From the NCBI GenBank assembly GCA_029392055.1, contig CP113928.1:1114501-1178500 (forward strand): DNA of 64,000 bases, given 5' to 3'. Position 1 is the stretch's first letter. Every line of letters begins with the position of its first letter. The notes below the pieces were generated by a model that was not told the origin of the DNA, made no database searches, and worked only from the letters and a program-made list of their open reading frames with translations. A program made the position numbers and the translations under genes. This document shows, piece by piece, positions 21,447 through 37,749 of the stretch. The stretch is from Leuconostocaceae bacterium ESL0723 (GTDB lineage: Bacteria > Bacillota > Bacilli > Lactobacillales > Lactobacillaceae).

Positions 21447-21965
21447 TTAAGGCTTAAATGTGGCCAAGGTTTCGGCAAGTTGTTGGAGCTCACCGGAATA
21501 GTGCCGAATGCCATATTCATAGGTGTAGATTTGACCAGCAGACATCCCCTGCTGCCGCCATTCTGGTCCCCGCTTTTCCAGATCAGCCAACTTGGCTTGA
21601 ACCAGACCCATTTGTACTTCAGTAAATTTTTTCAGAGTCGATTCATCAAGAAACTCACCAAAATACATCCGCATCAAATAATCATTTTTGGTCAGGTCAG
21701 GGTTTATATCAGCTCGAACGGCCTGCTCAAAAACTGTCCGACCGCTGTCCGTGATGGTGAAAACATTTTTGTTGGGTTTGTCAGTTTGAGTAATGACCTG
21801 CCCAACCACCAAACCTTTTTGTTCCAGTTTTTTGAGGGTTGGATAAATCATGCCGTAGCCACCGCCGTAAAAGTGGTTTAAGCGACTGGTGATGATTTCT
21901 TTAATTTGATAACCGGTTAAGCTGCTTTTCATCAGCAAACCTAGAATAATTGCCTGCCCTGTCAA
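21447..21965 (-). CDS. PadR family transcriptional regulator
   Basis: A 172-residue PadR repressor. The winged helix domain (about 1-85) has GLLMKSSLTGYQIKEII, GGYGMIYPTLKKLEQKGLV and a beta-wing; the C-terminal helical dimerisation part follows. Translation starts at TTG (21963-21965) after AAGGAG. It lies 40 bases downstream of an MFS efflux gene in the same direction. The natural reading is that it represses its own operon and releases on a toxic ligand. Confidence 0.88.
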   Translation of the reverse strand: MTGQAIILGLLMKSSLTGYQIKEIITSRLNHFYGGGYGMIYPTLKKLEQKGLVVGQVITQTDKPNKNVFTITDSGRTVFEQAVRADINPDLTKNDYLMRMYFGEFLDESTLKKFTEVQMGLVQAKLADLEKRGPEWRQQGMSAGQIYTYEYGIRHYSGELQQLAETLATFKP

Positions 21966-22005
21966 TCTGTCGCTCCTTGTTTGTCCTTATTTCTATTGTA
22001 ACGAA

Positions 22006-23571
22006 TTATTGATGATTAGACTGCGGCCTTTTCTTAAATAAGAAGACCGAAAACAGCGATAGGCCTAAGGCCGGAGTGGCGTAACGATATAACCGGACAT
22101 ATGCCAGGCGGTAACGAGTTTTTGAGTAAGTAACCAAATCACCAATATTATTCTGTAACCAATGCGTTAGCGGAGGGAAAGCCACTGGTGCCTGGTCTTG
22201 GGTTTGCTTTTGCTGGTTACCACCGGTCAGCTGACGCTGCAACTTGGGCAAAACCTGGTCTTGGACTGGTTGCGGTACGCCTGATTGCTTGACGCTCTCT
22301 TGGACATGGTGGCCAACATCACTTTTAGCAGTGCTTACATTGGCCGTTAATAGACTCACGAAAACCGCGACCGAAATGACCACGCCGATTTGACGCAAAA
22401 CCCCAGCAACGCTTTGAGAAGCACTCAACAAAGTACCGGTAAAATTAGCTGAAGCTAAAACGGTGGTCGGTCCGACAATCAAACCATAGCCTGCACCAAT
22501 CAAGGCCCCTGCAATCATCGCCGAACCTGAATGGCTGAGCGCATTGGTGAAACCATAGCCATAATAACCCAGCAACATCAGAATAAAACCGGTGGCCAAC
22601 AAAGTGCGGGGTCCAAGTTTCTCTAAGGAAAATCCAGATACTGGTGACAAAAAGAAAATCATGGCCGTAATCGGGGTAATCATTAATGATGCCTCAAAGG
22701 TTGTCTGCCCCATCACGTTGACGTAGTAGTTAGGCAAAATGACCGTGGTGGCAACCAGAAAGAAGCTGCTGAGGACAATCACGATGGCCGCGCCCACAAA
22801 TTGACGATTCTTAAAGAGATTCAGCGGAATCATAGGATCAGGCTGGTGCCTTTCGCAATAGAGGAAAAGTCCAGAGGCAATGATACTCAAGCTAGCAAAC
22901 CCCAGAGTAGGCCAGGACTGCCATCCCCAAGTCCGACCCTGGACCAACATTGTGGTCAGTGAAGCCAGCGTGATAATTGACAAGAACGAACCAGTTAAAT
23001 CTAGGTGTAAATCGGTCACTCTGGGCTGCTTAGCCAATGACTTGGCAGCAATTACCACAATCAACACCACTAAAGGAACGTTAATAAAGAAAAGCCAGTG
23101 CCAGCTTAGCCATTGGGTGATAATTCCACCCAGAGAAGGGCCCAAGGCCGCTGGCAGCCCCTGCATCAGACCCAGTAAGGCAATCATCTTGGTCCGTCGC
23201 TGACTATCAACCTGGTTAATCCCCAGCACCATGGCGAGTGGGAAAATCGTGGCCGCCCCGACACTTTGAATGATTCTACCTAGTATTAGGATGCTCAATT
23301 GTCCAGCCATCCCCGAAACAATCGAGCCCATTCCAAATATAAGCGCACCTGCGATAAAGAACCGCTTTTGGCCGAAAAGTTCGGCAAAACGGGTAATGGG
23401 AATGGTCAAACTGGCAAAGGCTATCGTGTAGGCATTTAGCGCCCATGATAGTTGATCTAGACTCACACCCAAATTTTCTGATATCGCCGGCAGGGCAATG
23501 TTTAAAATCGTTGTGTCCAACATGCAAATAAAAATACTTAGCATGAAGGCCAAACTTAACCACTTTTTCAT
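22006..23571 (-). CDS. MFS multidrug efflux transporter, DHA2 (EmrB/QacA) type
   Basis: A 521-residue protein with about 14 membrane segments. Motif C-like GLMQGLPAALGPSLGGII and the N-terminal MLDTTILNIALPAI are typical of DHA2 drug:H+ antiporters. A hydrophilic loop of about 70 residues rich in Gln lies before the last segment. The gene precedes padR in a two-gene unit. It also lies directly downstream, same strand, of the second bacteriocin locus, with a large palindrome in the gap and no clear terminator. Confidence 0.9.
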   Translation of the reverse strand: MKKWLSLAFMLSIFICMLDTTILNIALPAISENLGVSLDQLSWALNAYTIAFASLTIPITRFAELFGQKRFFIAGALIFGMGSIVSGMAGQLSILILGRIIQSVGAATIFPLAMVLGINQVDSQRRTKMIALLGLMQGLPAALGPSLGGIITQWLSWHWLFFINVPLVVLIVVIAAKSLAKQPRVTDLHLDLTGSFLSIITLASLTTMLVQGRTWGWQSWPTLGFASLSIIASGLFLYCERHQPDPMIPLNLFKNRQFVGAAIVIVLSSFFLVATTVILPNYYVNVMGQTTFEASLMITPITAMIFFLSPVSGFSLEKLGPRTLLATGFILMLLGYYGYGFTNALSHSGSAMIAGALIGAGYGLIVGPTTVLASANFTGTLLSASQSVAGVLRQIGVVISVAVFVSLLTANVSTAKSDVGHHVQESVKQSGVPQPVQDQVLPKLQRQLTGGNQQKQTQDQAPVAFPPLTHWLQNNIGDLVTYSKTRYRLAYVRLYRYATPALGLSLFSVFLFKKRPQSNHQ

Positions 23572-23653: not shown

Positions 23654-23821
23654 TTATTTTTTAAGTAGGTGAATTAAAAAATGAGTCAAGGCTGCTCCCA
23701 AAAGCGCTATCAATATTGAAATGCCAATGCTCATCCAAAAAGAATGATGACTAATCACCAAGGCGTATGACAGGGCAAAAACGGCCGCAAAAACTGTCAT
23801 ATATGGGTTAAATGATTTCAT
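23654..23821 (-). CDS. Candidate bacteriocin immunity peptide (locus 2)
   Basis: A 55-residue protein, MKSFNPYMTVFAAV... ending HLLKK. It has two hydrophobic helices separated by HHSFW and a Lys pair at the end. Small hydrophobic proteins of about 50 residues, often cationic, placed right after the ABC ATPase are the usual immunity proteins of circular bacteriocin loci. The start overlaps the last 14 bases of the ATPase gene and has AGAGG upstream. It is the last gene of locus 2. The assignment rests on size, hydropathy and position; no sequence match was recognised. Confidence 0.68.
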   Translation of the reverse strand: MKSFNPYMTVFAAVFALSYALVISHHSFWMSIGISILIALLGAALTHFLIHLLKK

Positions 23822-24479
23822 GAATGGTCATCCTCTCTTCAACAAAGGCTGCGATCTCAACTTCATCAGCGAAATTGGTACATAATTGCCGACCCGTAAC
23901 CCCACCATTGGCTAAAACTAAAACTTCATCTGCATACTGCCAGGCTAAACTCGGTGTGTGCGTTGTGAAAACCATGGTGGGTATCACCTTTGGCAGCAAC
24001 CCACTTAGAATTTGATTAGTGGTTAAATCTAATTCAGTAAAGGGTTCGTCAAGTAAGAGAAGGTCTGGCCGCACCAATAAGGCAATGAGCATTAGCACCT
24101 TAAAACCCATCCCCTTGGAATAAGTCTTCAGAATCTGAGTACTTAAAACAGTTGGATCCAAGCTCAAGCGTCGCGCTAGCTTATGCAACTCTCTAATATC
24201 CAGTCCAACTCTTTTGATTCTTAGGGTCAGGGCAACGAACTCTTCCCCAGTCAGATAGCCTAGTGGCAACAGCGGTAAATCGATTAACATCCGATTATCA
24301 GGACAACCACTCATCTCTCCCCGCACCGACAGGTCCTGGTTCATAATTTTAAGCAGGGTGGTTTTACCTACCCCGTTAGCCCCAAAAATTGCATAGCGGC
24401 GTCCCGAATGAATGGTTAAATTCAAATCGGTAAAAATTTGCTCTGCACCATAGGCAAAATCCACGTGTGTCAGTTGCAT
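23808..24479 (-). CDS. ABC transporter ATP-binding protein of bacteriocin locus 2
   Basis: A 223-residue ABC ATPase: Walker A GANGVGKTT (33-41), Walker B LLLLDEPF, switch THTP. The signature is degenerate (TYSKGM in place of LSGGQ). In circular bacteriocin loci this protein energises export and/or helps immunity together with the SpoIIM-like and large membrane proteins. The start overlaps the stop of the upstream gene as TAATG, and the end overlaps the 55-codon immunity candidate. Confidence 0.87.
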   Translation of the reverse strand: MQLTHVDFAYGAEQIFTDLNLTIHSGRRYAIFGANGVGKTTLLKIMNQDLSVRGEMSGCPDNRMLIDLPLLPLGYLTGEEFVALTLRIKRVGLDIRELHKLARRLSLDPTVLSTQILKTYSKGMGFKVLMLIALLVRPDLLLLDEPFTELDLTTNQILSGLLPKVIPTMVFTTHTPSLAWQYADEVLVLANGGVTGRQLCTNFADEVEIAAFVEERMTIHEII

Positions 24480-24940
24480 TACTTCAATACCCCCTCTTCA
24501 ATCACGGCTGCTACTACCAGCAAAACCAGGGCACCCGCCAGCAGGACCCATTGAATTCGAGTAAATGGCCGATGCTGATCACTAATGATTGCCACCCCAA
24601 TCGCCATCGCCAGTACTTCCAGTGGCCCAAAAAGCATCAGGCGTCCCAAGATTAAGGGGATGCCGTTGATGGACAGGGAGACAGCATACAAGAGCAGAAA
24701 ACGAACTAAGTTAAACCAGTAAACCCCCTGCCCTAAACGGTGCCAAAAGTACCCCAGTCCAACCATCGTCAACAAAACCACCGCATTATTTAGGAAAATA
24801 AAACCAGCTGCTGGCGCCATTACCGGCGTGGGATGGCGGCTAATCGATTCCGGAAACAGGACAAAAAAGACGGTTACCAGGCCCACGCCACCAAGAAAGG
24901 CGAGCCAGTAATAGACCATCAAACAGAGTATTTTTTTCAT
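24479..24940 (-). CDS. SpoIIM/DUF95-like membrane protein of bacteriocin locus 2
   Basis: A 153-residue protein with about four or five membrane segments. By position (between the large membrane protein and the ATPase) and size it is the counterpart of the locus 1 SpoIIM-like protein, but the family hallmark HGxFE is reduced to FGPLEVLA. The ATG at 24940 overlaps the upstream stop as ATGA; a 69-codon N-terminal extension of the open frame is not coding. It probably forms the membrane part of the ABC complex. Confidence 0.7.
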   Translation of the reverse strand: MKKILCLMVYYWLAFLGGVGLVTVFFVLFPESISRHPTPVMAPAAGFIFLNNAVVLLTMVGLGYFWHRLGQGVYWFNLVRFLLLYAVSLSINGIPLILGRLMLFGPLEVLAMAIGVAIISDQHRPFTRIQWVLLAGALVLLVVAAVIEEGVLK

Positions 24941-26169
24941 AGTATCAGTCCCCAATACATGCCCAAAATCAAGGGTCCTAAGGTCGATAGTCCCGAAAGC
25001 AATTCCAAGGCCTGGTGATAGACCGGGTTCAGATAACGGTAAAGTCCGTACTGCCAGGCAAACATCACGGCTAGTAATCCTGCTGCAATCAATAGTTGAC
25101 CAAAGTCCCATTTGCCTGACCAAGAGGCTACGACAGCAACTACACAAGCTGGAAAAGTCAACAAGGCGAAAAGCACTGGTATCTGTCGGCTAAAGAAACG
25201 AGAGCAATCATCGCCCAGCAACCCTAAATAGTCATAAATTGCCTGGTTCAACCAGTAGCGGTTATTAAAGGGCGTGTACAGAAAGATCAGCAGGGCCACT
25301 AAGATAAGCATCAGCGGCAGGGCTTTTTGGGGCCAGACCCAGGCCAATAAAATCAAATAGGGCAGGAAAGGTAGGTGGGGGATAAATTCTCGTTGTACAA
25401 AGTCACGGTAAGGACTGGCTAGGCGTCGCTCCCAGCTATCCTCTAACACGCTGGGTCTTGAAAGTTTCTGCATCACCCAGCTAAGGGCTGGCCAAACTAT
25501 CAAAATCAGGATCAAAACATAGGTGGCCTCCTGCCAAAGGGTGTCCACACGCCACCAAGTCACTATCAGTATTCCACCCGCTAAAATTCCCGCCACCATA
25601 GTGTGGGCAAGTAGCCGGTAAACGACCGATTTTTGTCCGCAATCCTGATTGGTCAGTCGACTACCCCACCGTTCAAAACGAACCCGCAACCAAACCGGCA
25701 AACTCGCAGCCAAAGCTGCGACCAATGTTACCAGGCCCTTATCGTGCAACTTCAAAGCCAAAATAAACAGCAACAGTGAGGTCGCCAACACAAATGCAAG
25801 TACCGGCCACTGGTAATACTGCCGGAGCTTCCGCTGCCAGTTAATCTGCTGGGCCGTCGTAAAGAGGCCACTAGTAAAGTAGTCAGCTAAACCCAATTGC
25901 TGCCAATCCTGTTGTAACTGGGCAGTGGTGCCAACCAGTCCTAAACCAATTAAGCCGGCTAAAATCAGGACCAACAGCTCTTTGGACCAGGGCCAGAGAC
26001 CATTAATACCGGCCAGAGCCAAGCTAAACATTCCCGCCATCATGGCTAAACGCAGGGCCCGATAAACCATTAAAAAACGACCAATCGCTGGTTTAGACAG
26101 GATCTGTTGATAATGGTCAGCATAGTAGGCAGTTTTTAACAGTCGCAATTTTCGGTACCAACTCAACAT
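24937..26169 (-). CDS. Large polytopic membrane protein of bacteriocin locus 2
   Basis: A 410-residue protein with about ten or eleven membrane segments and no recognised enzyme motif. Similar large membrane proteins follow the precursor gene in circular bacteriocin loci and are needed for production (maturation/cyclisation or export), though the mechanism is unknown. I start at the ATG at 26169, which has GGGAGG six bases upstream; the ORF's earlier start lies inside the previous gene. The Trp- and Leu-rich composition resembles the locus 1 counterpart, but I see little direct identity. Confidence 0.72.
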   Translation of the reverse strand: MLSWYRKLRLLKTAYYADHYQQILSKPAIGRFLMVYRALRLAMMAGMFSLALAGINGLWPWSKELLVLILAGLIGLGLVGTTAQLQQDWQQLGLADYFTSGLFTTAQQINWQRKLRQYYQWPVLAFVLATSLLLFILALKLHDKGLVTLVAALAASLPVWLRVRFERWGSRLTNQDCGQKSVVYRLLAHTMVAGILAGGILIVTWWRVDTLWQEATYVLILILIVWPALSWVMQKLSRPSVLEDSWERRLASPYRDFVQREFIPHLPFLPYLILLAWVWPQKALPLMLILVALLIFLYTPFNNRYWLNQAIYDYLGLLGDDCSRFFSRQIPVLFALLTFPACVVAVVASWSGKWDFGQLLIAAGLLAVMFAWQYGLYRYLNPVYHQALELLSGLSTLGPLILGMYWGLIL

Positions 26170-26170
26170 C

Positions 26171-26641
26171 CTAGCCTCCCTGCATAACGGTCGCAACAAC
26201 CGTACTAAAAACGGTCCCCAGGACCAATATTGCGACAGTCACTGTATTTTTAGACCACGTCAGGCCCAACTGTTCAAGGTGACTAGCCACCCAGAGTTGG
26301 TAGGCCACAAAGATTAGACCACTACCTAACCAAAGTACCCAGCGTTCTTGCCAGCCAAGCAAGAGCGACAAGTAAGTCCAAGCCACTAAGACCAGACCCT
26401 GACTGCCATACACTTGCTTCAAAACTGCAACCTGACAAGTCATCCCGTTAACGAGTTTGGTGATGTAGGTAAATAGAAAGCGATAAACCCCATACGTCCC
26501 AGCAATGGTGACGAGGAGCGCCAGCGTTCCAACCACCATGAAAATACCGCCATAGTCTTGCTGACGAGCACGGCTCCACAAATAAACCACTCCCAAGACT
26601 AAGTCGAGGGTGGCAAGCAAGCGATTAACATATTTACGCAC
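26171..26641 (-). CDS. Accessory membrane protein of bacteriocin locus 2
   Basis: A 156-residue protein with about four membrane segments, no known domain. GTG at 26641 is the likely start: GGAGG lies eight bases before it, whereas the upstream in-frame ATG (26656) has no SD and contains that GGAGG itself. Small membrane proteins of this size are frequent in circular bacteriocin loci. It could assist maturation or immunity. It follows the precursor gene across a hairpin. Confidence 0.65.
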   Translation of the reverse strand: MRKYVNRLLATLDLVLGVVYLWSRARQQDYGGIFMVVGTLALLVTIAGTYGVYRFLFTYITKLVNGMTCQVAVLKQVYGSQGLVLVAWTYLSLLLGWQERWVLWLGSGLIFVAYQLWVASHLEQLGLTWSKNTVTVAILVLGTVFSTVVATVMQGG

Positions 26642-26668
26642 AAAACAAACCTCCATGAACTTGAAAGA

Positions 26669-26694
26669 GGGCCCTGTGTTACCACAGGAACCCC
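26669..26694 (-). promoter_or_regulatory. Hairpin between precursor 2 and its processing genes
   Basis: CCTGTG (26673-26678) pairs with CACAGG (26683-26688), extended by GGG/CCC across an internal loop. There is no long T-run, so it is more likely an mRNA stabiliser or partial terminator that raises the precursor:processing ratio. Confidence 0.5.
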
Positions 26695-26702
26695 AGAAAA
26701 GA

Positions 26703-27044
26703 TTACAGGTTGCGGACCCAGTTAGAGTTGAGCGCCTGCTGAATACCGAATGAGAAGATGATGTTCAAAGCCATTTCAACTAAGAAGCCGGGACCCGTAA
26801 TGGCTGAGACAGCCGCGGCCATGCTGGAACCAGCCTTATAGGCACGGTAAACCGCGGTAATAATTGACGATGCCTTGGCAGCACTAATACCCAGGGTAGA
26901 TGCCAAGAGTGGCATGTGTAAGAAGGCCAGGAAAATACCGGTAAAGACCAACCCCAGGGCTAGTTCCCACTTCATGTTCGCCTTAATACCATTCGCCCGC
27001 TTCAACAGGGCCAGGCCCCACAATCGATCCATTGTTGCTTGCAT
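26703..27044 (-). CDS. Circular-bacteriocin-type precursor, locus 2
   Basis: A 113-residue precursor. A long leader (about 1-46, with a basic patch KRANGIKANMK and a hydrophobic stretch) is followed by a small helical, hydrophobic domain starting LASTLGISAAKASS (47 on). The LASTLGIS start resembles amylocyclicin-type circular bacteriocins. The candidate mature region (47-113, 67 residues) has four basic residues and one acidic. Its end, NSNWVRNL, lacks the usual small/aromatic hydrophobic tail. I start at the ATG at 27044, with GGAGG five bases upstream, and not at the GTG at 27107. It is the first gene of the locus. Confidence 0.72.
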   Translation of the reverse strand: MQATMDRLWGLALLKRANGIKANMKWELALGLVFTGIFLAFLHMPLLASTLGISAAKASSIITAVYRAYKAGSSMAAAVSAITGPGFLVEMALNIIFSFGIQQALNSNWVRNL

Positions 27045-27075
27045 AAAATCCTCCAAATGATTGACTAAGTTCTGG

Positions 27076-27109
27076 CAGTGGTATTCCATCCGACCAAGTC
27101 TTACCACTG
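27076..27109 (-). promoter_or_regulatory. 5' leader stem-loop and 4-codon mini-ORF of precursor 2
   Basis: CAGTGGTA (27076-27083) and TACCACTG (27102-27109) form a perfect 8-bp stem with an 18-base loop, 32 bases before the precursor start. Just upstream on the minus strand AAAGGAGG is followed at eight bases by GTG CAG CAG TGG TAA, a possible 4-codon leader overlapping the stem. Confidence 0.5.
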
Positions 27110-27186
27110 CTGCACCTCTTTAACCTCCTTTTGGCCGGCTACTTTAATATACGAAGGGCATCATTGAAATTTGGTGACAAACATGC

Positions 27187-27220
27187 AAAAAACAGGGCAG
27201 TTATTCCTAAAACTGCCCTG
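27187..27220 (-). terminator. Strong terminator upstream of bacteriocin locus 2
   Basis: CAGGGCAGTT (27193-27202) pairs perfectly with AACTGCCCTG (27211-27220), and on the minus strand is followed by TTTTTT (27187-27192). It lies between divergent genes, pointing into the bacteriocin leader, where no upstream minus-strand gene needs it. Confidence 0.75.
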
Positions 27221-27263
27221 CTCTGTGCTAAACTGACCGAATAACGCTATCAGGAGAAAAACC

Positions 27264-27842
27264 GTGCCTAACAGCCCTAAATACCAGCAAACTGACCAAA
27301 AAATCCAAAACGTTTTCCTGCAACTAGTCAAAAAGTACGGCTACCAGAAAACATCGGTCCGGATGATTATCGCTGAATGTCAGATTAACCGATCTACTTT
27401 TTACGCCCACTACCTGGATAAGCCGGATTTAATGGAAAAAATCCAAGACCAGCTCCTCGACCGCCTACTAAACGACCTGCCTCCATTAGATTTCCAGCTT
27501 TACCAAAAAGCCAACATGGCCCACCAACGGATTGCAGCTATGGCAGACCGGGTTTATGCCGAGCGAAAACTCTTTTCCCTCCTCTTAAGTGATCGGGCCG
27601 ACGGGCTTTTCGCCCAACACCTCCTGCAAAGGGCCGAGCAGGAATTTGATGCCTCTCCCCTGACTGACCACCTGGCCATCCCTAAGCCCTACTTGTTAGC
27701 CACCACTTCTAGTTTGATTATTAATCTCTTTGTCACCTGGATTCGCCGCGACTTTGCTGAAAGTCCGGCCGAATTTACGAAAATTGCCCAAAGAGTTTCG
27801 GTGACCACCGTACGAGAACTAGTTGCCAACACTGGTGATTAA
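27264..27842 (+). CDS. TetR/AcrR family transcriptional regulator
   Basis: A 192-residue TetR-type repressor. The N-terminal helix-turn-helix (about 10-55) reads KYGYQKTSVRMIIAECQINR then STFYAHYLDKPDL; the C-terminal ligand domain is not classifiable. Start GTG after CAGGAG. It is divergent from bacteriocin precursor 2 and lies 84 bases before a YhgE-like membrane gene whose promoter has a palindrome, so that gene is the most likely target. It could also affect the bacteriocin promoter. Confidence 0.88.
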   Translation: MPNSPKYQQTDQKIQNVFLQLVKKYGYQKTSVRMIIAECQINRSTFYAHYLDKPDLMEKIQDQLLDRLLNDLPPLDFQLYQKANMAHQRIAAMADRVYAERKLFSLLLSDRADGLFAQHLLQRAEQEFDASPLTDHLAIPKPYLLATTSSLIINLFVTWIRRDFAESPAEFTKIAQRVSVTTVRELVANTGD

Positions 27843-27869
27843 AATCCAACACTTGATGGTTTTTAATGG

Positions 27870-27909
27870 TTTCCCTTTCTGCCAACCAATCCTATACTTG
27901 ATTTATCAA
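27870..27909 (+). promoter_or_regulatory. Promoter and TetR-type operator of the YhgE-like gene
   Basis: TTTCCC (27870-27875), 17 bases, TATACT (27893-27898), overlapped by the palindrome TTGAT-TT-ATCAA (27898-27909). A repressor here would block the start site. Confidence 0.6.
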
Positions 27910-27926
27910 TTCAAGACATAGGAGAT

Positions 27927-28973
27927 ATGAAAATGAAGTCGACATGGAAATTCATTCTAGGCCTCGTAGTTGGCCTTACGGCCCTCTTGGCCGTATTGAT
28001 GACTGCCTTCTCACTACCCGCCGTTAATTCCGGCGTCCACCAGGTGCCCATCGCCCTGGTAACTAGTGACCAGGCAACCTACGACAAGTTAGCTAAGCCT
28101 TTGGAAGACAAGGGCTTCAAGGTTGAAAAGTATACCAGCGAAAAGAGCCTGACTGAAGGTGTTAACGAGCGTAAGATTTACGGTGGGATTGAACTCTCCC
28201 AGGCCGGAGACGTCACTGTTTACCAGGCCACTGCTGCCTCCTCAGCTGTCGCCCAGGCCCTGAGCCAAATTGGAACCGGTATGGTAACCCAGCAAAAGGC
28301 CGCGGCCACTACGCAAATCCAAACCACGCTGCAGCAGGCCACTGATTCAACCATGATTAAGACTCTGAGTGCTAAGCTTGCCGCAGTCAATGCTAAGCAG
28401 GTTAAGGTCGTTGAACTCAAGGCCTTTCCTAAGGCCGACCCTAAGGGAACTGGTCTAGCCGCCGGTGCTCTCCCAATTGCCCTAGGTGGCTGGATTGGCG
28501 CCGTAGCGATTGCGACCATGGTCAAGGGTAAGCGCCAAAAGATTTACGCCATCCTTAGCTTCGCGGTTATTGGTGGCCTGGGTCTGATTGCCGTTATCCA
28601 GTACGGTATCGGTACCTTCGATGGTAACTACTTCTACACTTCCCTGGGTGCTATGCTTGGCATCGCTGCTACTGGCTTCTTCGTCCTCGGACTCTTGGAA
28701 GTTATGGGCAACGCCGGCCTTGGTGTCGCTGCCGTCCTCTTAATCCTGCTAGGTAACCCCCTATCAGGACTGAGCTCCGCCCCTGAAATGCTTCCTTCTG
28801 GTTGGGGTGCCTTTGGACAACTCCTCCCACCTGGTGCCACTGGAACCCTGCTACGCAACATCGCCTTCTTCAATGGGAATGCCATTGCGGAACCGGTTAT
28901 CGTGCTTTCCTGCTACGTCGTAGTTGGTGCCCTGCTCTACTGGTTTGGCAAGCGTTCAAACCAACCCGCTTAA
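27927..28973 (+). CDS. YhgE/Pip-like membrane protein (ABC-2 type)
   Basis: A 348-residue protein: one membrane segment (about 8-30), an extracytoplasmic domain (about 35-170; VPIALVTSDQATYDKL, then a helical Ala/Gln/Thr-rich part), then four or five membrane segments (about 180-340). This is a short version of the YhgE/DUF3533 layout, related to ABC-2 permeases and often next to TetR regulators. Such proteins are linked to export or envelope stress, but the substrate is unknown. SD AGGAGAT. Set between two bacteriocin loci, it may help self-protection; that is inference. Confidence 0.75.
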   Translation: MKMKSTWKFILGLVVGLTALLAVLMTAFSLPAVNSGVHQVPIALVTSDQATYDKLAKPLEDKGFKVEKYTSEKSLTEGVNERKIYGGIELSQAGDVTVYQATAASSAVAQALSQIGTGMVTQQKAAATTQIQTTLQQATDSTMIKTLSAKLAAVNAKQVKVVELKAFPKADPKGTGLAAGALPIALGGWIGAVAIATMVKGKRQKIYAILSFAVIGGLGLIAVIQYGIGTFDGNYFYTSLGAMLGIAATGFFVLGLLEVMGNAGLGVAAVLLILLGNPLSGLSSAPEMLPSGWGAFGQLLPPGATGTLLRNIAFFNGNAIAEPVIVLSCYVVVGALLYWFGKRSNQPA

Positions 28974-28981
28974 TCACAAAT

Positions 28982-29013
28982 AAAAAAAGACCTGACAATG
29001 TCAGGTCTTTTTT
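28982..29013. terminator. Bidirectional terminator between YhgE-like gene and locus 1
   Basis: AAAGACCTGACA pairs with TGTCAGGTCTTT around a small loop, with A7 before and T6 after. Confidence 0.9.
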
Positions 29014-29019
29014 CATATC

Positions 29020-29496
29020 TTATATAAAGGTCAAACCGACATTCATAACCAGGGCGACGACAACTAAAATCACCGTTCCCCGGTAGTCCTTGCTCAGAGT
29101 GGCGTAAACCACGGCTAAAAGAATGGTTTGCAAAATACCGGTTGCCCAACTGGGCGCAACCCAGTTCAAAACATTTCCCAAAGCCACTAGGAGATAGGTC
29201 AGGGACAAGGCGCCAGTCAGGGCCCGATAGAGCGCGCCGTATTGATGCTTAGACGATAGTTTCAGTACCAGCCAGTAGACGACAAACATTAGCCCTAGTA
29301 AAGTCCAGGCCACCAAAATAACAATCAAAACTTCAAAGGTTACCAGTTGGGCTGAACTAAGGTTCAAAGATGCCTGCAAATTAGACAGGGCTGACCAGGT
29401 ACTGCTATCATCAGGCAAAGTGAAAAATAACAACAGGTAGGCCAAAGGCACCGCCAGTAACAGGAGCCAGTTTACAACTTTATGATTCTGGTTCAT
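29020..29496 (-). CDS. Membrane protein at the end of bacteriocin locus 1
   Basis: A 158-residue protein with four or five membrane segments and no recognised domain. It overlaps the end of the ATPase gene by 17 bases and starts after AGGTGG. As the last gene of locus 1, in the place held by immunity genes, it is the best immunity candidate there, although it is three times the usual size. It is also similar in size to the accessory membrane protein of locus 2. Confidence 0.65.
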   Translation of the reverse strand: MNQNHKVVNWLLLLAVPLAYLLLFFTLPDDSSTWSALSNLQASLNLSSAQLVTFEVLIVILVAWTLLGLMFVVYWLVLKLSSKHQYGALYRALTGALSLTYLLVALGNVLNWVAPSWATGILQTILLAVVYATLSKDYRGTVILVVVALVMNVGLTFI

Positions 29497-30097
29497 TGGG
29501 TCGCCACCTTTCTAAGGCAATTTTTTCCACTGGGAAATCGCGTTGACTGAAATCTTCGGCATGGGAAACCAGGATAATTGGCCCCTGCCCAGCTTCGGCC
29601 CGTTCAGTCAATCGGTACCAAATCCAGTCCAGACTATTTTGGTCAATCCCATTTAAGGCCTCGTCCAATATCGTCAGGCCATAGGCCTGCTGACAAGCTA
29701 AGAGGGCCAAGCCGACCTTGTTTTGGTTTCCCAGTGAGCTGTCCTGGTAATCTTGGTTTAGCAAGTGCTGGTCCCCACCAAAGAGCAGAGATGCCCGAGA
29801 CATATCAATGGTCCCACCCAAAATGTCGGCACTGAGCCGGATATTATCGGCAATGCTTAAGTACGGCAAACCAATCCCACTATCGGTTAAGAACAGGGTC
29901 GTTTTAGGATCCCGGTCATTTTTAATCTCACCCTGGTAATGGCGGTCGAGACCACCAATCATCCGCAGCAAAACGGATTTCCCCCAGCCATTTGGCGCCT
30001 GAAACTGGTAAATATGACCATCCGCCAAGGTCAAATCAATCCCCTCGAACAAAGGACGACCATCAATTGTTTTACTTACATTTTCTAAACGAATCAT
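29480..30097 (-). CDS. ABC transporter ATP-binding protein of bacteriocin locus 1
   Basis: A 205-residue ABC ATPase. Walker A is APNGWGKS (34-41), with Ala in place of the first Gly. The signature is SLGNQNK instead of LSGGQ. Walker B LTILDEA and switch VSHAEDF are recognisable. The same degenerate-signature type occurs in locus 2, suggesting a specialised subfamily. The gene starts immediately after the TAG of the SpoIIM-like gene. Confidence 0.87.
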   Translation of the reverse strand: MIRLENVSKTIDGRPLFEGIDLTLADGHIYQFQAPNGWGKSVLLRMIGGLDRHYQGEIKNDRDPKTTLFLTDSGIGLPYLSIADNIRLSADILGGTIDMSRASLLFGGDQHLLNQDYQDSSLGNQNKVGLALLACQQAYGLTILDEALNGIDQNSLDWIWYRLTERAEAGQGPIILVSHAEDFSQRDFPVEKIALERWRPNEPES

Positions 30098-30589
30098 CTA
30101 CCATCCCTCAATAACCGCCGCGACCGCCAGAAATCCGACCGGGACCAGGTACCAGACCCAGTTAACCCGAACAAAGCGTCCTACCATCAACCAGCTGCGG
30201 GTCTTCACTAAAACCCGTAGCATTTTGGCTGATAAATACTGAAACAAAAAAATTGCGGGAATCTCAAAAATCCCATGGGGCCATAAATCCTGCCAAGTTG
30301 CGCGCCAGCCTACCAAACGTATATTTAACCCTAGTGCCAAGGATTGGCCCAGCCAGTTCCAAATAATCAACAAGGGACTAATGACAAAGAGGACTAGGTT
30401 AACCAACATCACTAGGAGATTATGCCAAAAAATTTCCCAGATGCGGGGCCAGCCGTGACCAACTGGTGCCGGGGTTCCCGGAACGAAGGCATGAGCAAAG
30501 AGTAGCCAGTATAGGCCAGCCACTAGCCCTGCTAGCAAAAATAAGTCAATTAATTGCCAGACTAAAACCCGCTGCCAACGTACTTTCAT
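30098..30589 (-). CDS. SpoIIM/DUF95 family membrane protein of bacteriocin locus 1
   Basis: A 163-residue membrane protein with about five segments and the SpoIIM/DUF95 hallmark WPHGIFEIPAIFLFQYLSAK (about 101-120). DUF95 proteins form the membrane partner of the ATPase in circular bacteriocin loci (AS-48 C1, CirC/D-like) and take part in production and immunity. This signature is the strongest family link for the whole island. The SD (AGAGG) overlaps the stop of the upstream gene. Confidence 0.85.
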   Translation of the reverse strand: MKVRWQRVLVWQLIDLFLLAGLVAGLYWLLFAHAFVPGTPAPVGHGWPRIWEIFWHNLLVMLVNLVLFVISPLLIIWNWLGQSLALGLNIRLVGWRATWQDLWPHGIFEIPAIFLFQYLSAKMLRVLVKTRSWLMVGRFVRVNWVWYLVPVGFLAVAAVIEGW

Positions 30590-30599
30590 CCGATTTCCT

Positions 30600-31736
30600 C
30601 TACATGATATCTACCCAGGCCAAGCCGATTAGTACCAGCACCAGGAGATATTCCTCCCAAAATTTTGGCCGCTTCTCCCGCTTAACCACCAGCTGGCGAC
30701 CAACAATGGCCGTGTAAAACTGGAGGGCAATCAGAACAACCAGGGCTAGAATCCACTGCAGCAAGACCCACAAATTGCCACCAGCAACTAGTGGCCAGGC
30801 CAAAAGCCCAACAAAGACTACTTGTTGCTGACCGGTACGGGCCAGGCTACCATAACGGACCTGCTGCCACAAAGACTGATTAGCCAGGAAGGTAATCCGG
30901 GCAATCAGGTGCCGGTTCCCGTTGAGTATGGCCTGACAGTAAATTTCTAAAGTAACAACGTAAAATAAGACCGGAATGGTCAGAACCGGGATGGGCCAGT
31001 GCCAGACCTCCCGAGCGAATAGGCCAGCTATAATCAACACCAGTTCTCCCAAACTGCCCCAACCAAAGCGGCCGGCCAACCAGCGGTTAAACCCACGGCC
31101 GACCCGACCATTAATGACCCGCTTAACGGCTAGGTCATCCTGGTCATACCAGTGGTAGAGCACGTGACCCCAGGCTGCTAACAAAAAGGCCAGGGTTGCC
31201 AAAGACACCCAGGGCCAGTGGCCGTCCAATAATGACAAGCAGCCAGCAATTAAGACGGCCAGCGACAACCAGCGCAACGGGAAGGCCCAAACCGAGGGCC
31301 AATTCTTGGCACTGAGATAGACCAGGGCAAAGGCTACCAAGTTTAACCAGGCTAACAACAACCCCCAACGACCACTCAGTGGCCCTAAGATCCACAAAAT
31401 CACCGAAAAGGCGACGAAGGCATAGGTTAATGGATTCAGCCGCAGCCAAATCCAAAGCCGGTACCGCATTTGGGCTGGCCAACCGGCGACCCGGTATACT
31501 GGCGGAATGTTCGCCCACCGGCGCAGAATAGTCTGGTGCTGGAAGGCCAGGGTTAGGTAGGTGAAGACCAGTAGGATTACAAGGCCAGTTGGCTGATTAA
31601 GTACAGTAGCCAACCAGGCCACCAAAATACCCACCAAGGCATTGATTAAGATTAGGGCTGGATAAAGTGGTAAACTTTGTGCTTCTGGACCCAGCTTCAG
31701 CTGCTTAGCCCAGGATTTTTGAAGTAGGGCAAACAT
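30600..31736 (-). CDS. Large polytopic membrane protein of bacteriocin locus 1
   Basis: A 378-residue protein with about ten membrane segments, Trp- and Leu-rich, no recognised enzyme motif. It is positional counterpart of the 24937-26169 product and of the large membrane proteins (B-type) in known circular bacteriocin loci. I start at the ATG at 31736, with AGGAG six bases upstream; the GTG at 31766 lies within a hairpin. A polar loop (YHWYDQDDLAVKRVINGR) separates the two membrane halves. Confidence 0.74.
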   Translation of the reverse strand: MFALLQKSWAKQLKLGPEAQSLPLYPALILINALVGILVAWLATVLNQPTGLVILLVFTYLTLAFQHQTILRRWANIPPVYRVAGWPAQMRYRLWIWLRLNPLTYAFVAFSVILWILGPLSGRWGLLLAWLNLVAFALVYLSAKNWPSVWAFPLRWLSLAVLIAGCLSLLDGHWPWVSLATLAFLLAAWGHVLYHWYDQDDLAVKRVINGRVGRGFNRWLAGRFGWGSLGELVLIIAGLFAREVWHWPIPVLTIPVLFYVVTLEIYCQAILNGNRHLIARITFLANQSLWQQVRYGSLARTGQQQVVFVGLLAWPLVAGGNLWVLLQWILALVVLIALQFYTAIVGRQLVVKREKRPKFWEEYLLVLVLIGLAWVDIM

Positions 31737-31762
31737 GGCCAACTCCTGTCCAAAAGAAAGGA

Positions 31763-31785
31763 GCACTTAATATTTCACTAAGTGC
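31763..31785 (-). promoter_or_regulatory. Hairpin between precursor 1 and its processing genes
   Basis: GCACTTA (31763-31769) pairs with TAAGTGC (31779-31785), followed on the minus strand by CTCCTTTCTTTT. It is placed exactly like the hairpin after precursor 2 and may act as a leaky terminator favouring the precursor. Confidence 0.55.
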
Positions 31786-31808
31786 CCGCCTTCTATTTTT
31801 AGCTTATT

Positions 31809-32093
31809 TTACCAGTTGGCAGCGGCATCGTGACCGTAACGGCCCCATGCCCACTTAGCTGCCGCCAACAGGCTGGCACCAAAGCCGGCCGTGCCGCCGA
31901 CCACCGTCAAAACAGCGACAACCGTACCAATCGTTTCAGCGACTGAAACAACGGTCTGCGCAACCTCGTGTGACAGGCCAAACTGAGCAGCCAACATGGA
32001 CTGGCTGTGAGCCAAGGCCCATGAAATGGCAATCACTGCCAAAGCTGCCATAGCAACCATTACTAAGACGTTAATTTGCTTGCGCTTCATCAT
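31809..32093 (-). CDS. Circular bacteriocin precursor, locus 1 (uberolysin/leucocyclicin-like)
   Basis: A 94-residue precursor. The leader (1-33) is hydrophobic with a basic start (MMKRKQ). The candidate mature peptide (34-94, 61 residues) begins LAAQFGLSHEVAQTVVSVAE, has a Gly-rich turn VVGGTAGFGAS, then AAAKWAWGRYG and ends AANW. Leu first, an aromatic last residue, about 60 residues and this helix-turn-helix pattern fit subgroup I circular bacteriocins, in which residue 1 is joined to the last to make a membrane-active ring. Unusually it has three acidic and two Lys/Arg residues. SD GGGAGG. First gene of locus 1. Confidence 0.85.
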   Translation of the reverse strand: MMKRKQINVLVMVAMAALAVIAISWALAHSQSMLAAQFGLSHEVAQTVVSVAETIGTVVAVLTVVGGTAGFGASLLAAAKWAWGRYGHDAAANW

Positions 32094-33309: not shown

Positions 33310-33339
33310 TTGACGCTCAGCGCTTCACAAAATTATATA
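33310..33339 (+). promoter_or_regulatory. Promoter of the DUF5067 gene
   Basis: TTGACG (33310-33315), 18 bases, TATATA (33334-33339) running into TAATATTAT, about 55 bases before the start codon. Confidence 0.6.
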
Positions 33340-33394
33340 TAATATTATGCATGTGCAGCACTGAACCACACTAAAAGCTGAGGGAGAGAATTTT

Positions 33395-34123
33395 ATGGAA
33401 AACGGAGAACGTAAAGTACTAGGAATCCTGGCAATCGTTTTCGGCGGTGTCGGGCTACTCTTTTCGTGGGTACCAATCATCAACAATTTGTCCTTTATCT
33501 TGGGCTTGGTTGGCTTAGTACTTGGTATAATTGCCCTGTTTATTAACAAGCGTAATCGTAAGGTCTTAGCAATTATTGGTACAGTGCTGTCAGCGCTGAC
33601 AATGGTCATTGTTTTAGCCGTCCAATCATCATATTCAAAGACAATTGAAAATTCCATCGGTACCAATAGCACTAAGAGCTCAGGCAATCAAAAAGCTACA
33701 TCGATCCTGAACAAGGACATTGATGTGGACAATGGCAATGCCACAATAAAGGTCACGGAATACAAAATTATTCAGCCAGGTCAGCCTGGTAATCAGTACG
33801 GTAAAAAGCCAGTTATTGCTTTCTGGTATACGACTACCAACCACACTGATAAAGACCTGACGCCAATGAATGCTTGGATTGTCTCTGCTTCACCAAAGGT
33901 AATTCAAGATAACGATAAGAACAAAGAAAACACCCTCAAGATGGGCAGTCTTCCTGACGATAAGTTCTTAGAATCCCAGTCTCAAAACATTAAAAAAGAT
34001 GGTACTGTTGAAGATGCCATGGCATACGAGTTGACTGACGACCACACCCCGGTTAAAATGATTTTCGAAAAATCAGTAACCGACAAAACTCCAATAGCTG
34101 AACAAACGTTTGACGTTAAGTAA
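33395..34123 (+). CDS. DUF5067-type membrane-anchored protein
   Basis: A 242-residue protein: three hydrophobic segments in the N-terminal about 72 residues (LGLVGLVLGIIALFINKR is the clearest), then a Ser/Asn-rich linker and a C-terminal extracellular beta domain (about 105-240; ATIKVTEYKIIQPG, then PVIAFWYTTTNHTDKDLTP) of the DUF5067 type seen in many lactobacilli, often in putative lipoproteins. Function unknown. SD GAGGGAGAG. Stands alone. Confidence 0.78.
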   Translation: MENGERKVLGILAIVFGGVGLLFSWVPIINNLSFILGLVGLVLGIIALFINKRNRKVLAIIGTVLSALTMVIVLAVQSSYSKTIENSIGTNSTKSSGNQKATSILNKDIDVDNGNATIKVTEYKIIQPGQPGNQYGKKPVIAFWYTTTNHTDKDLTPMNAWIVSASPKVIQDNDKNKENTLKMGSLPDDKFLESQSQNIKKDGTVEDAMAYELTDDHTPVKMIFEKSVTDKTPIAEQTFDVK

Positions 34124-34165
34124 AATTAACAAAAGTACATTTACTCCTAGTCGTGAATAAAGCAA

Positions 34166-34200
34166 AAGAGCACCTACAACTGCAGGTGCTCTTTCATTTT
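34166..34200. terminator. Terminator after the DUF5067 gene
   Basis: AAGAGCACCT pairs with AGGTGCTCTT, followed by TCATTTTT; A-rich on the other side. The rest of the gap to 34288 has nothing I can assign. Confidence 0.82.
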
Positions 34201-34288
34201 TACAAATAGTCAACTTAGTTTTCGGACTACATCTTAAGATGCCTGTCTTCTAGATGCTAAAACACCCACCTGGTAAAATCGTAGCTCA

Positions 34289-35077
34289 TCAATCACTAAC
34301 TATTTGGAAAATGGCTTGCTTAGTCGCATCCCACGCCTTGGCATCTTTGTTCGTCAAATCAAAATGACCCGCACCAGGAATCTCAATCAGTTGAACATCC
34401 TCACCGCTTTGAAGCGCCTTTTCATAATATGATTTACTCAATTCGACCGGGACCCGGTCGTCGTTATCACCATGAACTAAGTACGTTTTAACCCCCAGTG
34501 GTAGCAAGTCAATGGGCGAGGCCAGCAGGTACCGATTAGGCAGCTGTTCAGGTGTGCCGCCCATGAAATTCGATACTGTATCAGCCATATCTGTATTTTG
34601 TTGATCCAGCCACATCTCTTGTAAATCAGTGACCCCAGCCATACTAACAACCCCAATAAACTTAATATTAATTGGCTCGCCCAGCTCATCATGCTCATGA
34701 TGGTAGCGCGATGCTGACCAAAGTGCTAAATGTCCGCCGGCTGAATGCCCGATTACCACCACTTGATTCAAATCAATCGGATACTGCTCCGCAATAGTTG
34801 CTAAGTAGTTGATTGCTAGGCTGACATCTTGAAAGGTTTGTGGGTAACCGCCGCCAGATTGACCGACCCGGCGATATTCAATGTTCCAGGTTGCAAATCC
34901 GGCTTCAACTAATTGCTCGTCTAGCGGATAGAAATCGGATAAATTAAATTTATCCTTCCAAAAACCACCATGGATGGATACCACCACCGGCACTTTTTCA
35001 TTATTGCCTTGATCAGGTAAACTCAACTCGCCAAATTGATCTCTTTGTGAACCGTAACTTAGCGTAACCTTTTTCAT
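34289..35077 (-). CDS. Alpha/beta hydrolase (carboxylesterase/acetyl esterase type)
   Basis: A 262-residue alpha/beta hydrolase. Oxyanion motif HGGFW (about 38), nucleophile VIGHSAGGHLALW (Ser about 117), acid in HGDNDDRVP and the final His in GAGHFDL complete the triad. No signal peptide. It resembles the BD-FAE/kynurenine formamidase-like esterases; the substrate cannot be told. The ATG at 35077, with AGGAGAA upstream, is preferred over earlier ones. Confidence 0.86.
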   Translation of the reverse strand: MKKVTLSYGSQRDQFGELSLPDQGNNEKVPVVVSIHGGFWKDKFNLSDFYPLDEQLVEAGFATWNIEYRRVGQSGGGYPQTFQDVSLAINYLATIAEQYPIDLNQVVVIGHSAGGHLALWSASRYHHEHDELGEPINIKFIGVVSMAGVTDLQEMWLDQQNTDMADTVSNFMGGTPEQLPNRYLLASPIDLLPLGVKTYLVHGDNDDRVPVELSKSYYEKALQSGEDVQLIEIPGAGHFDLTNKDAKAWDATKQAIFQIVSD

Positions 35078-35218
35078 GTCCATTTCTCCTAAAATCATCA
35101 TTCAAGACCAATTGTATTACATACCTCAAGCAACTCAACTATAATAATTAAACAAAAACCTGACCCGTCATTTAAGAATTGTAATGCAAGTGTCATCCCT
35201 TCAAATAACAAAAACAAA

Positions 35219-35257: not shown

Positions 35258-35330
35258 TGCCGACGAAAGGATTCGAACCTTCGACCCCAGGTTTACGATA
35301 CCCGTGCTCTACCAACTGAGCTACGTCGGC
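35258..35330 (-). tRNA. tRNA-Thr (anticodon CGU)
   Basis: A 73-base cloverleaf: acceptor GCCGACG/CGTCGGC, D arm GCTCAGTTGGTAGAGC, anticodon loop ATCGTAA (anticodon CGT), T arm GAAGGTTCGAATCCTTT. CCA is not encoded. Confidence 0.92.
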
Positions 35331-35478
35331 TTGACGTATCTGATCTTGAGCTGTCTCAAGACAACTATTACATTATCCCATCTAGGCCCTACCCTGTCAA
35401 TGACTTTCCCCCTACCTAAATTAAATATCCACCCGGCACAAACTGTGAAATAATAGTCCTATTGTTGGGAGGTCTACC

Positions 35479-36132: not shown

Positions 36133-36134
36133 AT

Positions 36135-36169
36135 AAAAGCACCTGAATCTTTTCGATTCAGGTGCTTTT
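36135..36169. terminator. Bidirectional terminator, YczE-like gene / tRNA-Asn
   Basis: AAAGCACCTGAATC pairs with GATTCAGGTGCTTT around TTTTC. It suits both convergent transcripts. Confidence 0.9.
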
Positions 36170-36172
36170 TGA

Positions 36173-36245
36173 CTCCGACTGCCGGGCTCGAACCGGCGAC
36201 AACCTGATTAACAGTCAGGTGCTCTACCAACTGAGCTAAGTCGGA
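36173..36245 (-). tRNA. tRNA-Asn (anticodon GUU), copy 1
   Basis: A 73-base cloverleaf: acceptor TCCGACT/AGTCGGA, D arm GCTCAGTTGGTAGAGC, anticodon loop CTGTTAA (GTT), T arm GCCGGTTCGAGCCCGGC. Identical to the copy at 37750-37822. Confidence 0.95.
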
Positions 36246-36330
36246 ATAGTTCTTTTTGCTTAAGCCACTGGCTTAAGACAACTATTATATTATCCCATCC
36301 AGCCCGAGCCCTGTCAATTATTTTCTAACT

Positions 36331-37745: not shown

Positions 37746-37749
37746 TGAA

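What the first reader, a model, noticed from the sequence alone, without database searches (positions are those of the whole stretch)
23654..32093. Two dissimilar circular-bacteriocin-type loci in tandem
Seen: two minus-strand operons with the same order (precursor of 94 or 113 residues, large polytopic protein, SpoIIM/DUF95-like protein, ABC ATPase with a degenerate signature, small membrane protein). Known: this is the gene set of circular bacteriocins such as AS-48, carnocyclin and uberolysin. Inference: one cell makes two unrelated head-to-tail cyclised peptides. The loci share architecture but little sequence, so they look like separate acquisitions or an old divergence, not a recent duplication.
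Basis: partly seen in the sequence, partly recalled or inferred. Interest (0 to 1): 0.88.

Follow-up and report, generated by a model that had tools for sequence, protein, structure and literature searches.

The report
Two neighbouring circular-bacteriocin gene clusters
A small-genome lactic acid bacterium carries, side by side, two complete but separately derived gene clusters that each appear to make a ring-shaped antibacterial peptide; the class is known, but one cluster belongs to a little-described branch and the side-by-side pairing looks unusual.

Summary
Locus A (29020-32093, minus) matches the five-gene enterocin NKR-5-3B cluster in gene order and, for four of five genes, in sequence: precursor 30%, SpoIIM/DUF95 34%, ATPase 34%, last gene 26% identity. 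Locus B (23654-27044, minus) is not the "same order": it has an extra 156-aa membrane gene after the precursor and a different last gene. B still looks like a divergent circular-bacteriocin operon: no shuffle of 5000 reaches its core's score against other cores, its DUF95 protein matches A's at profile level, and a related operon in another genus passes Pfam's SpoIIM cut-off. A sister species keeps both loci; precursor dN/dS is 0.018 in each. An ATPase tree that holds A and B together is rejected (p 0.0003), against a recent duplication. Two circular bacteriocins in one strain are in print for Bacillus. Less known are the B type and the adjacency, which of 6 multi-locus genomes among 281 is seen only in this genus (two of the six unresolved). 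Cyclisation and activity are untested.

The parts
31809..32093 (-). locus A precursor, 94 aa
   Evidence: TIGR03651 28.7 bits (cut-off 30.7) and PF09221 22.4 (cut-off 23.6); phmmer to AS-48 E 0.0034 and NKR-5-3B E 0.038; 30% identity, E 3.7e-7 in a small set, to the NKR-5-3B precursor; dN/dS 0.018
31812..31994 (-). predicted locus A core L34-W94, 61 aa, cyclic mass about 6107.8 Da, calculated pI 6.0
   Evidence: NKR-5-3B residues 2-64 on query 35-94 and AS-48 2-46 on 35-79; mass and pI (printed before that script stopped); boundary inferred
30600..31736 (-). locus A large polytopic protein, 378 aa from ATG 31736
   Evidence: same place as the 394-aa gene of the NKR-5-3B cluster, but no BLASTP similarity to it (E 0.68)
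31761..31787 (-). hairpin with T-rich tail between precursor A and the polytopic gene
   Evidence: 12-pair stem; consensus match only, and the region as a whole holds no more such sites than shuffles (18 against 15.8, sd 4.1)
30098..30589 (-). locus A SpoIIM/DUF95 protein, 163 aa
   Evidence: PF01944 29.4 bits, cut-off 26.9; 34% to the NKR-5-3B cluster's protein, E 5e-14
29480..30097 (-). locus A ABC ATPase, 205 aa
   Evidence: PF00005 37.6 bits; 34% over 186 aa to the NKR-5-3B cluster's ATPase; tree
29020..29496 (-). locus A 158-aa membrane protein in the place of the last gene of the NKR-5-3B cluster; possible immunity protein
   Evidence: 26-28% over about 85 aa to that gene, E 1e-5 to 2e-4; 27% to the Lacticaseibacillus zeae counterpart
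28980..29016 (-). terminator-like hairpin after locus A
   Evidence: 17-pair stem with T run; see the control there
26703..27044 (-). locus B precursor, 113 aa
   Evidence: PF09221 17.8 bits, below cut-off 23.6 (read there as 134 aa); 32% to the NKR-5-3B precursor, E 8e-6 in a small set; relatives in G116 (E 2.8e-13) and G206 (E 5.4e-6); dN/dS 0.018
26706..26906 (-). predicted locus B core L47-L113, 67 aa, cyclic mass about 6887.9 Da, calculated pI 10.0
   Evidence: alignment in register with other cores; mass; boundary inferred (L46 also possible); no amino-acid difference in the sister species
26171..26641 (-). locus B extra membrane protein, 156 aa
   Evidence: counterpart in the same place in G116 and G206, 21% and 15% identical; no Pfam match at a cut-off
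24937..26169 (-). locus B large polytopic protein, 410 aa
   Evidence: 31% over 251-418 to the G116 counterpart, E 2.6e-9; no profile match to locus A's
24479..24940 (-). locus B SpoIIM/DUF95-like protein, 153 aa
   Evidence: hhalign to locus A DUF95 profile 90.5%, E 1.4e-6; G116 counterpart PF01944 28.5 bits, over cut-off, G206 counterpart no hit; shares the four columns invariant in 11 aligned proteins
23808..24479 (-). locus B ABC ATPase, 223 aa
   Evidence: PF00005 58.9 bits; 40% to G116 and 29% to G206 counterparts; tree
23654..23821 (-). locus B small basic membrane protein, 55 aa; possible immunity protein
   Evidence: two hydrophobic segments, pI 9.8; fast-changing, dN/dS 0.60 on about 11 changes

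Best explanation
The stretch is a two-cluster bacteriocin island in a small-genome Lactobacillaceae bacterium. Each operon makes a precursor of leader plus core (predicted 33+61 aa for A, 46+67 aa for B). Inferred steps: the leader is removed, the core folds into a helical bundle, and a membrane complex of the operon's polytopic protein, SpoIIM/DUF95 protein and ATPase joins the core's ends and exports the ring, which then permeabilises competing Gram-positive cells; the last small membrane protein (158 aa in A, 55 aa in B), with the ABC parts, protects the producer. A has the enterocin NKR-5-3B-type arrangement. B is a divergent type with an extra membrane gene after the precursor. They came together from separate sources and both are kept under selection. 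Shown: genes, order, homology, conservation, separate ancestry of the ATPases. Inferred: core boundaries, cyclisation, export, immunity, killing.
For: A: SpoIIM over Pfam cut-off; near-cut-off match to TIGR03651 and PF09221; register with NKR-5-3B over query 35-94; order of the NKR-5-3B cluster and similarity of four of its five genes. That cluster (L083) is recognised by its core, identical to the solved chain as printed and of the published 64 aa and 6316 Da. B: same operon set in G116 and in G206, taken to be MAG Nm470_bin23 by equal contig length; SpoIIM over cut-off in G116; DUF95 profiles match, E 1.4e-6; core 18.4 bits against a 7-core profile with 0 of 5000 shuffles and 0 of 451 segments of the other operon proteins (best 7.3) as high. 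Both: conserved in the sister species; precursor dN/dS 0.018 each; ATPase tree.
Against: Both precursors fall below the curated cut-offs of PF09221 and TIGR03651. B's PF09221 match (E 0.0039) is no stronger than a plainly chance one to LacY_symp (E 0.0049), and at E up to 1 PF09221 also rings in 2 of 14 control genomes. B finds no circular bacteriocin among solved structures at E up to 10. B's relatives fit the core profile poorly: 36 of 5000 shuffles reach the G116 core's 6.5 bits and 1407 of 5000 the G206 core's 1.7, and one of the 451 control segments scores 7.3. B's DUF95 protein and its G206 counterpart give no SpoIIM hit. B's core does not end in an aromatic residue, which circularin A needs (abstract of PMC10028692). 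A's core is slightly acidic (pI 6.0), unlike basic NKR-5-3B. Polytopic proteins of A and B, and of A and the NKR-5-3B cluster, do not match. Structure models of B's precursor and DUF95 protein were poor (pLDDT 52 and 50).
Confidence: 0.74

Rival explanations
1. Locus A makes a circular bacteriocin, but locus B, though descended from the same kind of operon, exports a peptide that stays linear or has a role other than killing, such as signalling.
For: B-type cores lack an aromatic last residue in 2 of 3 distinct cores (L, M, F). B fails the curated precursor models and finds no solved circular bacteriocin. Two of three B-type cores fit the core profile little or no better than shuffles.
Against: B keeps the set tied to cyclisation (DUF95, ATPase, polytopic). 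Its core is unchanged in the sister species and its precursor matches the NKR-5-3B precursor. Carnocyclin A, a proven ring, also ends in L (recalled, no call).
Confidence: 0.15
2. The two peptides work as one two-component agent, or the two clusters share maturation and immunity, so they are one system rather than two.
For: The pair is adjacent in both genomes of the genus. Of 13 of 281 family genomes with a DUF95 match, 6 have two or more; these two are adjacent, two others are not, and two have them on different contigs, so unresolved.
Against: Each operon has its own full set. G116 has a B-type operon and no A-type precursor at E up to 0.05. The NKR-5-3B cluster suffices alone (gene-set statement in passages). 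The two genes between run on the opposite strand and a terminator-like hairpin follows A.
Confidence: 0.06
3. One or both clusters are decaying remnants.
For: Low scores to curated models; the 55-aa gene of B changes fast, dN/dS 0.60 on few sites.
Against: All eleven genes are open in both genomes, and precursor dN/dS is 0.018 in both loci.
Confidence: 0.03
4. The two clusters arose by tandem duplication within this lineage.
For: Adjacency and partly shared gene content.
Against: ATPase tree puts A with NKR-5-3B (89/91) and B with G116 (96/90); the joined tree is rejected, p-AU 0.0003. Gene order and last genes differ.
Confidence: 0.02

Closest known systems
Enterocin NKR-5-3B (cluster enkBB1B2B3B4)
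   Same: Locus A: same five-gene order; 34% core identity (21 of 61), 34% DUF95, 34% ATPase, 26% last gene; long leader; core starts with L and ends with W.
   Different: A's core is 61 aa, not 64, with pI 6.0, not 9.9; leader 33 aa predicted, not 23 (table); the large polytopic protein shows no BLASTP similarity.
A-type operons in Lacticaseibacillus zeae DSM 20178 (L030/L040) and MAG Nm470_bin23 (L029/L037)
   Same: Same order precursor, polytopic, DUF95, ATPase as locus A; same ATPase clade, 94/99.
   Different: DUF95 identity 24-26%. Products unknown to me; the passages of PMC5471241 name only a two-peptide bacteriocin for L. zeae DSM 20178, and I made no search for this strain.
B-type operons in G116 (unnamed Lactobacillaceae) and MAG Nm470_bin23 contig C47; more loosely Pseudalkalibacillus hwajinpoensis plasmid NZ_CP156675.1
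   Same: G116 and Nm470_bin23: order precursor, 154-171 aa membrane protein, polytopic, DUF95, ATPase as in locus B; core identity 42% and 41%. Pseudalkalibacillus: precursor-like ORF with AYKAG (42% over 33 aa, E 0.002), SpoIIM and ATPase.
   Different: In the place of B's 55-aa gene G116 has a 64-aa ORF, not compared, and Nm470_bin23 a 114-aa ORF 62 bases on. In Pseudalkalibacillus a 178-aa gene stands before the precursor; its kinship to B's extra gene was not tested.
Garvicin ML (cluster garAXBCDE)
   Same: By gene names, an extra gene X after the precursor, as in locus B; a garX mutant made only precursor and linear forms (passages of PMC6131525).
   Different: No sequence of this cluster was compared here; the likeness is in the order of names only.
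Bacillus strains with two circular bacteriocins: B. altitudinis MG75 and ECC22, B. safensis C3 and APC 4099
   Same: Two dissimilar circular-bacteriocin clusters in one strain (passages); masses of both products were seen for ECC22 and APC 4099.
   Different: In ECC22 the clusters lie at separate sites; adjacency is not mentioned in the passages seen for the others.

Membership tests
Head-to-tail cyclised (circular) bacteriocins | Peptide bond between first and last core residue | not testable with these tools
   Needs mass spectrometry; predicted cyclic masses 6107.8 Da (A) and 6887.9 Da (B)
Head-to-tail cyclised (circular) bacteriocins | Cluster with precursor, DUF95 protein and ATP-binding protein (common minimum stated in the section of PMC8534725 read) | tested here: met
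   A. B: ATPase; DUF95 by profile and by the G116 counterpart; precursor, with the contrary results noted
Head-to-tail cyclised (circular) bacteriocins | Hydrophobic residues at both ends of the core | tested here: met
   Last residues W (A) and L (B) are the ends of the reading frames; first residues L rest on aligned, not proven, boundaries
Head-to-tail cyclised (circular) bacteriocins | Saposin-like bundle of four or five helices | tested here: inconclusive
   B precursor model is helical but poor, pLDDT 52; A not modelled; no fold search run
PF09221 Bacteriocin_IId | Score over the curated cut-off of 23.6 bits | tested here: not met
   A 22.4, B 17.8; six-frame 22.6 and 19.1. The sister species' A gave 24.9 six-frame but 22.5 as a protein
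TIGR03651 circularin A/uberolysin family | Score over the curated cut-off of 30.7 bits | tested here: not met
   A 28.7, B 14.0
Enterocin NKR-5-3B-type cluster (locus A) | Order precursor, membrane protein, DUF95, ATPase, small membrane protein | tested here: met
   Order the same
Enterocin NKR-5-3B-type cluster (locus A) | Sequence similarity of all five genes | tested here: inconclusive
   Four of five similar, E 3.7e-7, 5e-14, 8e-25 and 2e-4 in a small set; the polytopic protein not
Enterocin NKR-5-3B-type cluster (locus B) | Same order and grouping | tested here: not met
   Extra gene and different last gene; ATPase outside the A-type clade

The most novel reading that the evidence does not exclude
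Locus B founds an undescribed subgroup of circular bacteriocins, marked by Y-x-x-[YW]-[KR]-A-G-[SQ] in the core and a Trp four residues before an L, M or F end (three distinct cores), with a dedicated extra membrane gene. In this genus it has been joined to an NKR-5-3B-type cluster from another source in a stable side-by-side pair that gives one slightly acidic and one basic ring, and Lactobacillaceae such as the source of MAG Nm470_bin23 have gone further and stacked four or more such clusters.
Probability: 0.45. Interest if true: 0.6.

Novelty: new variant of a known kind. Interest (0 to 1): 0.45.

Why it matters
Cyclisation of these peptides has no assigned enzyme (passages). Two complete clusters of different ancestry in one cell allow gene-swap tests of which proteins are specific to a core and which are shared. 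The B type widens the set for finding the conserved machinery: across 11 DUF95 proteins of the two window loci and relatives only four columns are invariant (N57, E109, A158, E161 of locus A's protein), which are candidates for mutation. Genomes with two to perhaps four or more such loci also suggest that stacking ring bacteriocins is a habit of some Lactobacillaceae.

Tried and rejected
Plasmid and viral collections: both precursors and both polytopic proteins gave no match in plasmids or viral contigs; the G116 precursor gave none in plasmids; the DUF95 and B-precursor alignments gave none in viral contigs; PHROGs gave none for four proteins. The phage record collection was not searched. A mobile origin was therefore not supported, nor excluded.

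Structure: AlphaFold models of B's precursor and DUF95 protein came out at pLDDT 52 and 50, so no fold search was run. The jobs went in before the wider B alignment existed; that was a poor use of the cap.

Two-row B profiles gave weak results (hhalign 7% and 27%); they rose to 90.5% and 51% with four rows. The small membrane proteins of A and B showed no likeness.

Of 20 of 397 family genomes with a PF09221 match, wider stretches were fetched for nine. L033 showed no bacteriocin set in the ORF list; L034 gave only an ATPase hit and its ORFs were not listed; both were dropped. The other six outside the genus went into alignment A5. The remaining ten genomes, besides the window's own (loci L014, L016-L018, L020-L026), were not examined. 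Of 54 of 397 genomes with a B-precursor match at E up to 0.1 (own genus included), only G116 and G206 were followed, G013 being in hand. Of 6 of 395 order genomes with a B-profile match, G621 was followed and four weak ones were not. Of ten plasmid ATPase matches three were looked at; in the ORF lists of the Enterococcus and Aerococcus ones I saw no precursor-like or SpoIIM gene.
Full report
OBSERVATION. On the minus strand, locus A runs 32093 to 29020 and locus B 27044 to 23654. Between them, on the plus strand, stand a TetR regulator and an ABC-2-type permease. Refined starts: A polytopic ATG 31736, B extra gene GTG 26641, B polytopic ATG 26169. Behind the precursors (72 and 61 bases to the next gene) the genes lie within 10 bases of each other or overlap.

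LOCUS A. The 94-aa precursor scores 28.7 bits to TIGR03651 (cut-off 30.7) and 22.4 to PF09221 (cut-off 23.6). Among solved structures it finds AS-48 (E 0.0034) and NKR-5-3B (E 0.038), the latter over query residues 35-94 and chain residues 2-64. G621 (L083) holds a precursor whose core equals that chain; its calculated cyclic mass, 6316.4 Da, agrees with the published 6316.46 Da and 64 aa (table in PMC6131525). Its genes follow the order of locus A: precursor, 394, 149, 196 and 165 aa. Similarity is 30% (E 3.7e-7) for the precursor, 34% for DUF95 (5e-14), 34% for the ATPase (8e-25) and 26% for the last gene (2e-4); these E-values are for the ORFs of one 14-kb stretch. The polytopic proteins do not match by BLASTP. 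None of 5000 shuffles reaches the core's 37.9 bits against a profile of seven other cores (best 16.0).

LOCUS B. The 113-aa precursor is below the curated cut-offs (17.8 bits PF09221, 14.0 TIGR03651), its PF09221 match is no stronger than one to LacY_symp, and it finds no circular bacteriocin among solved structures. A search of 397 family genomes found full relatives in G116 (E 2.8e-13) and in G206 (E 5.4e-6); G206 is MAG Nm470_bin23 by equal contig length. Both carry the order precursor, 154-171 aa membrane protein, polytopic, DUF95-like, ATPase. The G116 DUF95 protein passes Pfam's SpoIIM cut-off (28.5 against 26.9); the G206 one gives no SpoIIM hit. The DUF95 profiles of the A and B types match with 90.5% probability, E 1.4e-6; precursor profiles 51%, E 1.5e-4, in register at the core's start. 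The B precursor matches the NKR-5-3B precursor (32%, E 8e-6 in a small set), and the B profile found that same gene in a search of 395 genomes of the order (E 5.7e-5). Control: the window's B core scores 18.4 bits against the seven-core profile; none of 5000 shuffles (best 12.7) and none of 451 segments of the other operon proteins (best 7.3) reaches it. For the G116 core (6.5 bits) 36 of 5000 and for the G206 core (1.7 bits) 1407 of 5000 shuffles do. So membership of the B branch rests on the window's member, the operon and the DUF95 protein more than on each precursor.

SELECTION. Between G000 and G001 (codon comparison) both precursors show dN/dS 0.018: A 15 synonymous and 1 non-synonymous difference, B 16 and 1. 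B's single change lies in the leader, A's in the core. The other operon genes range 0.03-0.31, except the 55-aa gene at 0.60 on 11 changes. Five neighbouring genes range from 0 to 0.12, so the precursors are not unique in their constraint; two further neighbours had no match.

ORIGIN. In a 16-row ATPase tree, A joins NKR-5-3B (89/91) within an A-type clade (94/99) and B joins G116 (96/90). Forcing the window's and sister's A and B together costs 37.9 log units, p-AU 0.0003. Deep branches are weak, the G206 B-type ATPase is not placed firmly with the other B rows, and L031 is long, so only the local points are used. Core identity A to B is 12 of 59 (20%), z 2.1; A to NKR-5-3B 21 of 61 (34%), z 8.8; B to NKR-5-3B 19 of 60 (32%), z 5.1; the other two B-type cores to NKR-5-3B z 2.4 and 1.6.

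HOW UNUSUAL. With an 11-row DUF95 profile at E 1e-12, 13 of 281 Lactobacillaceae genomes match, and 6 of the 13 have two or more: G000 2, G001 2, G133 2, G159 3, G183 2, G206 6. In G000 and G001 they are neighbours, about 5.2 kb apart. In G159 and G133 they are over 160 kb apart. In G183 and G206 they lie on different contigs, so adjacency there is unresolved. Caveats: the profile holds two rows of the window and four of G206, and a DUF95 match alone is not a bacteriocin locus. L. zeae (G328) has three DUF95 matches; two have precursor and ATPase beside them, and beside the third I saw none. G206 (65% complete) shows precursor, DUF95, polytopic and ATPase sets on four contigs and partial sets on three more.

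LITERATURE. Seen as passages: B. altitudinis ECC22 makes two circular bacteriocins from clusters at separate sites and is called, to its authors' knowledge, the first report of simultaneous production (PMC10888436); B. safensis APC 4099 (PMC7617318), B. altitudinis MG75 (PMC7017464) and B. safensis C3 (PMC8503640) carry two. Several similar precursor genes within one cluster are known (PMC7132975, section read). Surveys list 28 groups (PMC8534725, abstract and one section) and twelve groups plus twelve singletons (PMC8659200, passages); their supplementary lists could not be opened here, so B's group may already be listed there. Searches showed 20 of 5,811, 15 of 150, 15 of 35 and 13 of 15 papers; among the listings and passages seen I recognised none that describes two adjacent dissimilar clusters. 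That is a limited look, not proof of absence.

MECHANISM. That the products of the cluster together mature and export the peptide, with no enzyme assigned, is taken from passages of PMC6131525 and PMC10028692. A garX mutant of garvicin ML made only precursor and linear forms, which makes B's extra membrane gene, in the like place by gene name, a candidate for the same role; no sequence was compared.

VERDICT. Ordinary in kind, uncommon in arrangement: one new member of a known cluster type and one divergent variant, joined in one place and both under selection.

Noticed in passing
L029 (G206 C22), L074 (G206 C47), L088 8727-12210, L089 1945-4806; partial sets L096, L097, L098: MAG Lactobacillaceae Nm470_bin23 (65% complete) carries four different circular-bacteriocin-type operons on four contigs and partial sets on three more. 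Binning is unchecked.
   Followed up: partly
L099 3541-6436: Lacticaseibacillus zeae DSM 20178 holds a second circular-bacteriocin-type locus (93-aa precursor, SpoIIM, polytopic, ATPase) besides its A-type one; by eye the precursor resembles that of G206 C4.
   Followed up: partly
window 27264-28973, plus strand: A TetR regulator and an ABC-2-type permease with no ATPase gene directly beside it sit between the two clusters, conserved in the sister species. They might regulate or assist either cluster; no evidence.
   Followed up: no
window 21447-23571, minus strand: An MFS transporter starts 82 bases after locus B's last gene on the same strand, followed by a PadR regulator. The gap holds no terminator-like and two weak promoter-like sites, so read-through is possible.
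   Followed up: no
L082 1513-5157: Pseudalkalibacillus hwajinpoensis plasmid NZ_CP156675.1 has a B-like set with SpoIIM, ATPase and a precursor-like ORF with AYKAG, outside Lactobacillales.
   Followed up: partly
window 33324-35207 and 35258-37823: The sister genome's DNA match breaks between 33324 and 35207 (1.9 kb here, about 0.5 kb there), just before a tRNA-Thr and two tRNA-Asn genes on the minus strand.
   Followed up: no
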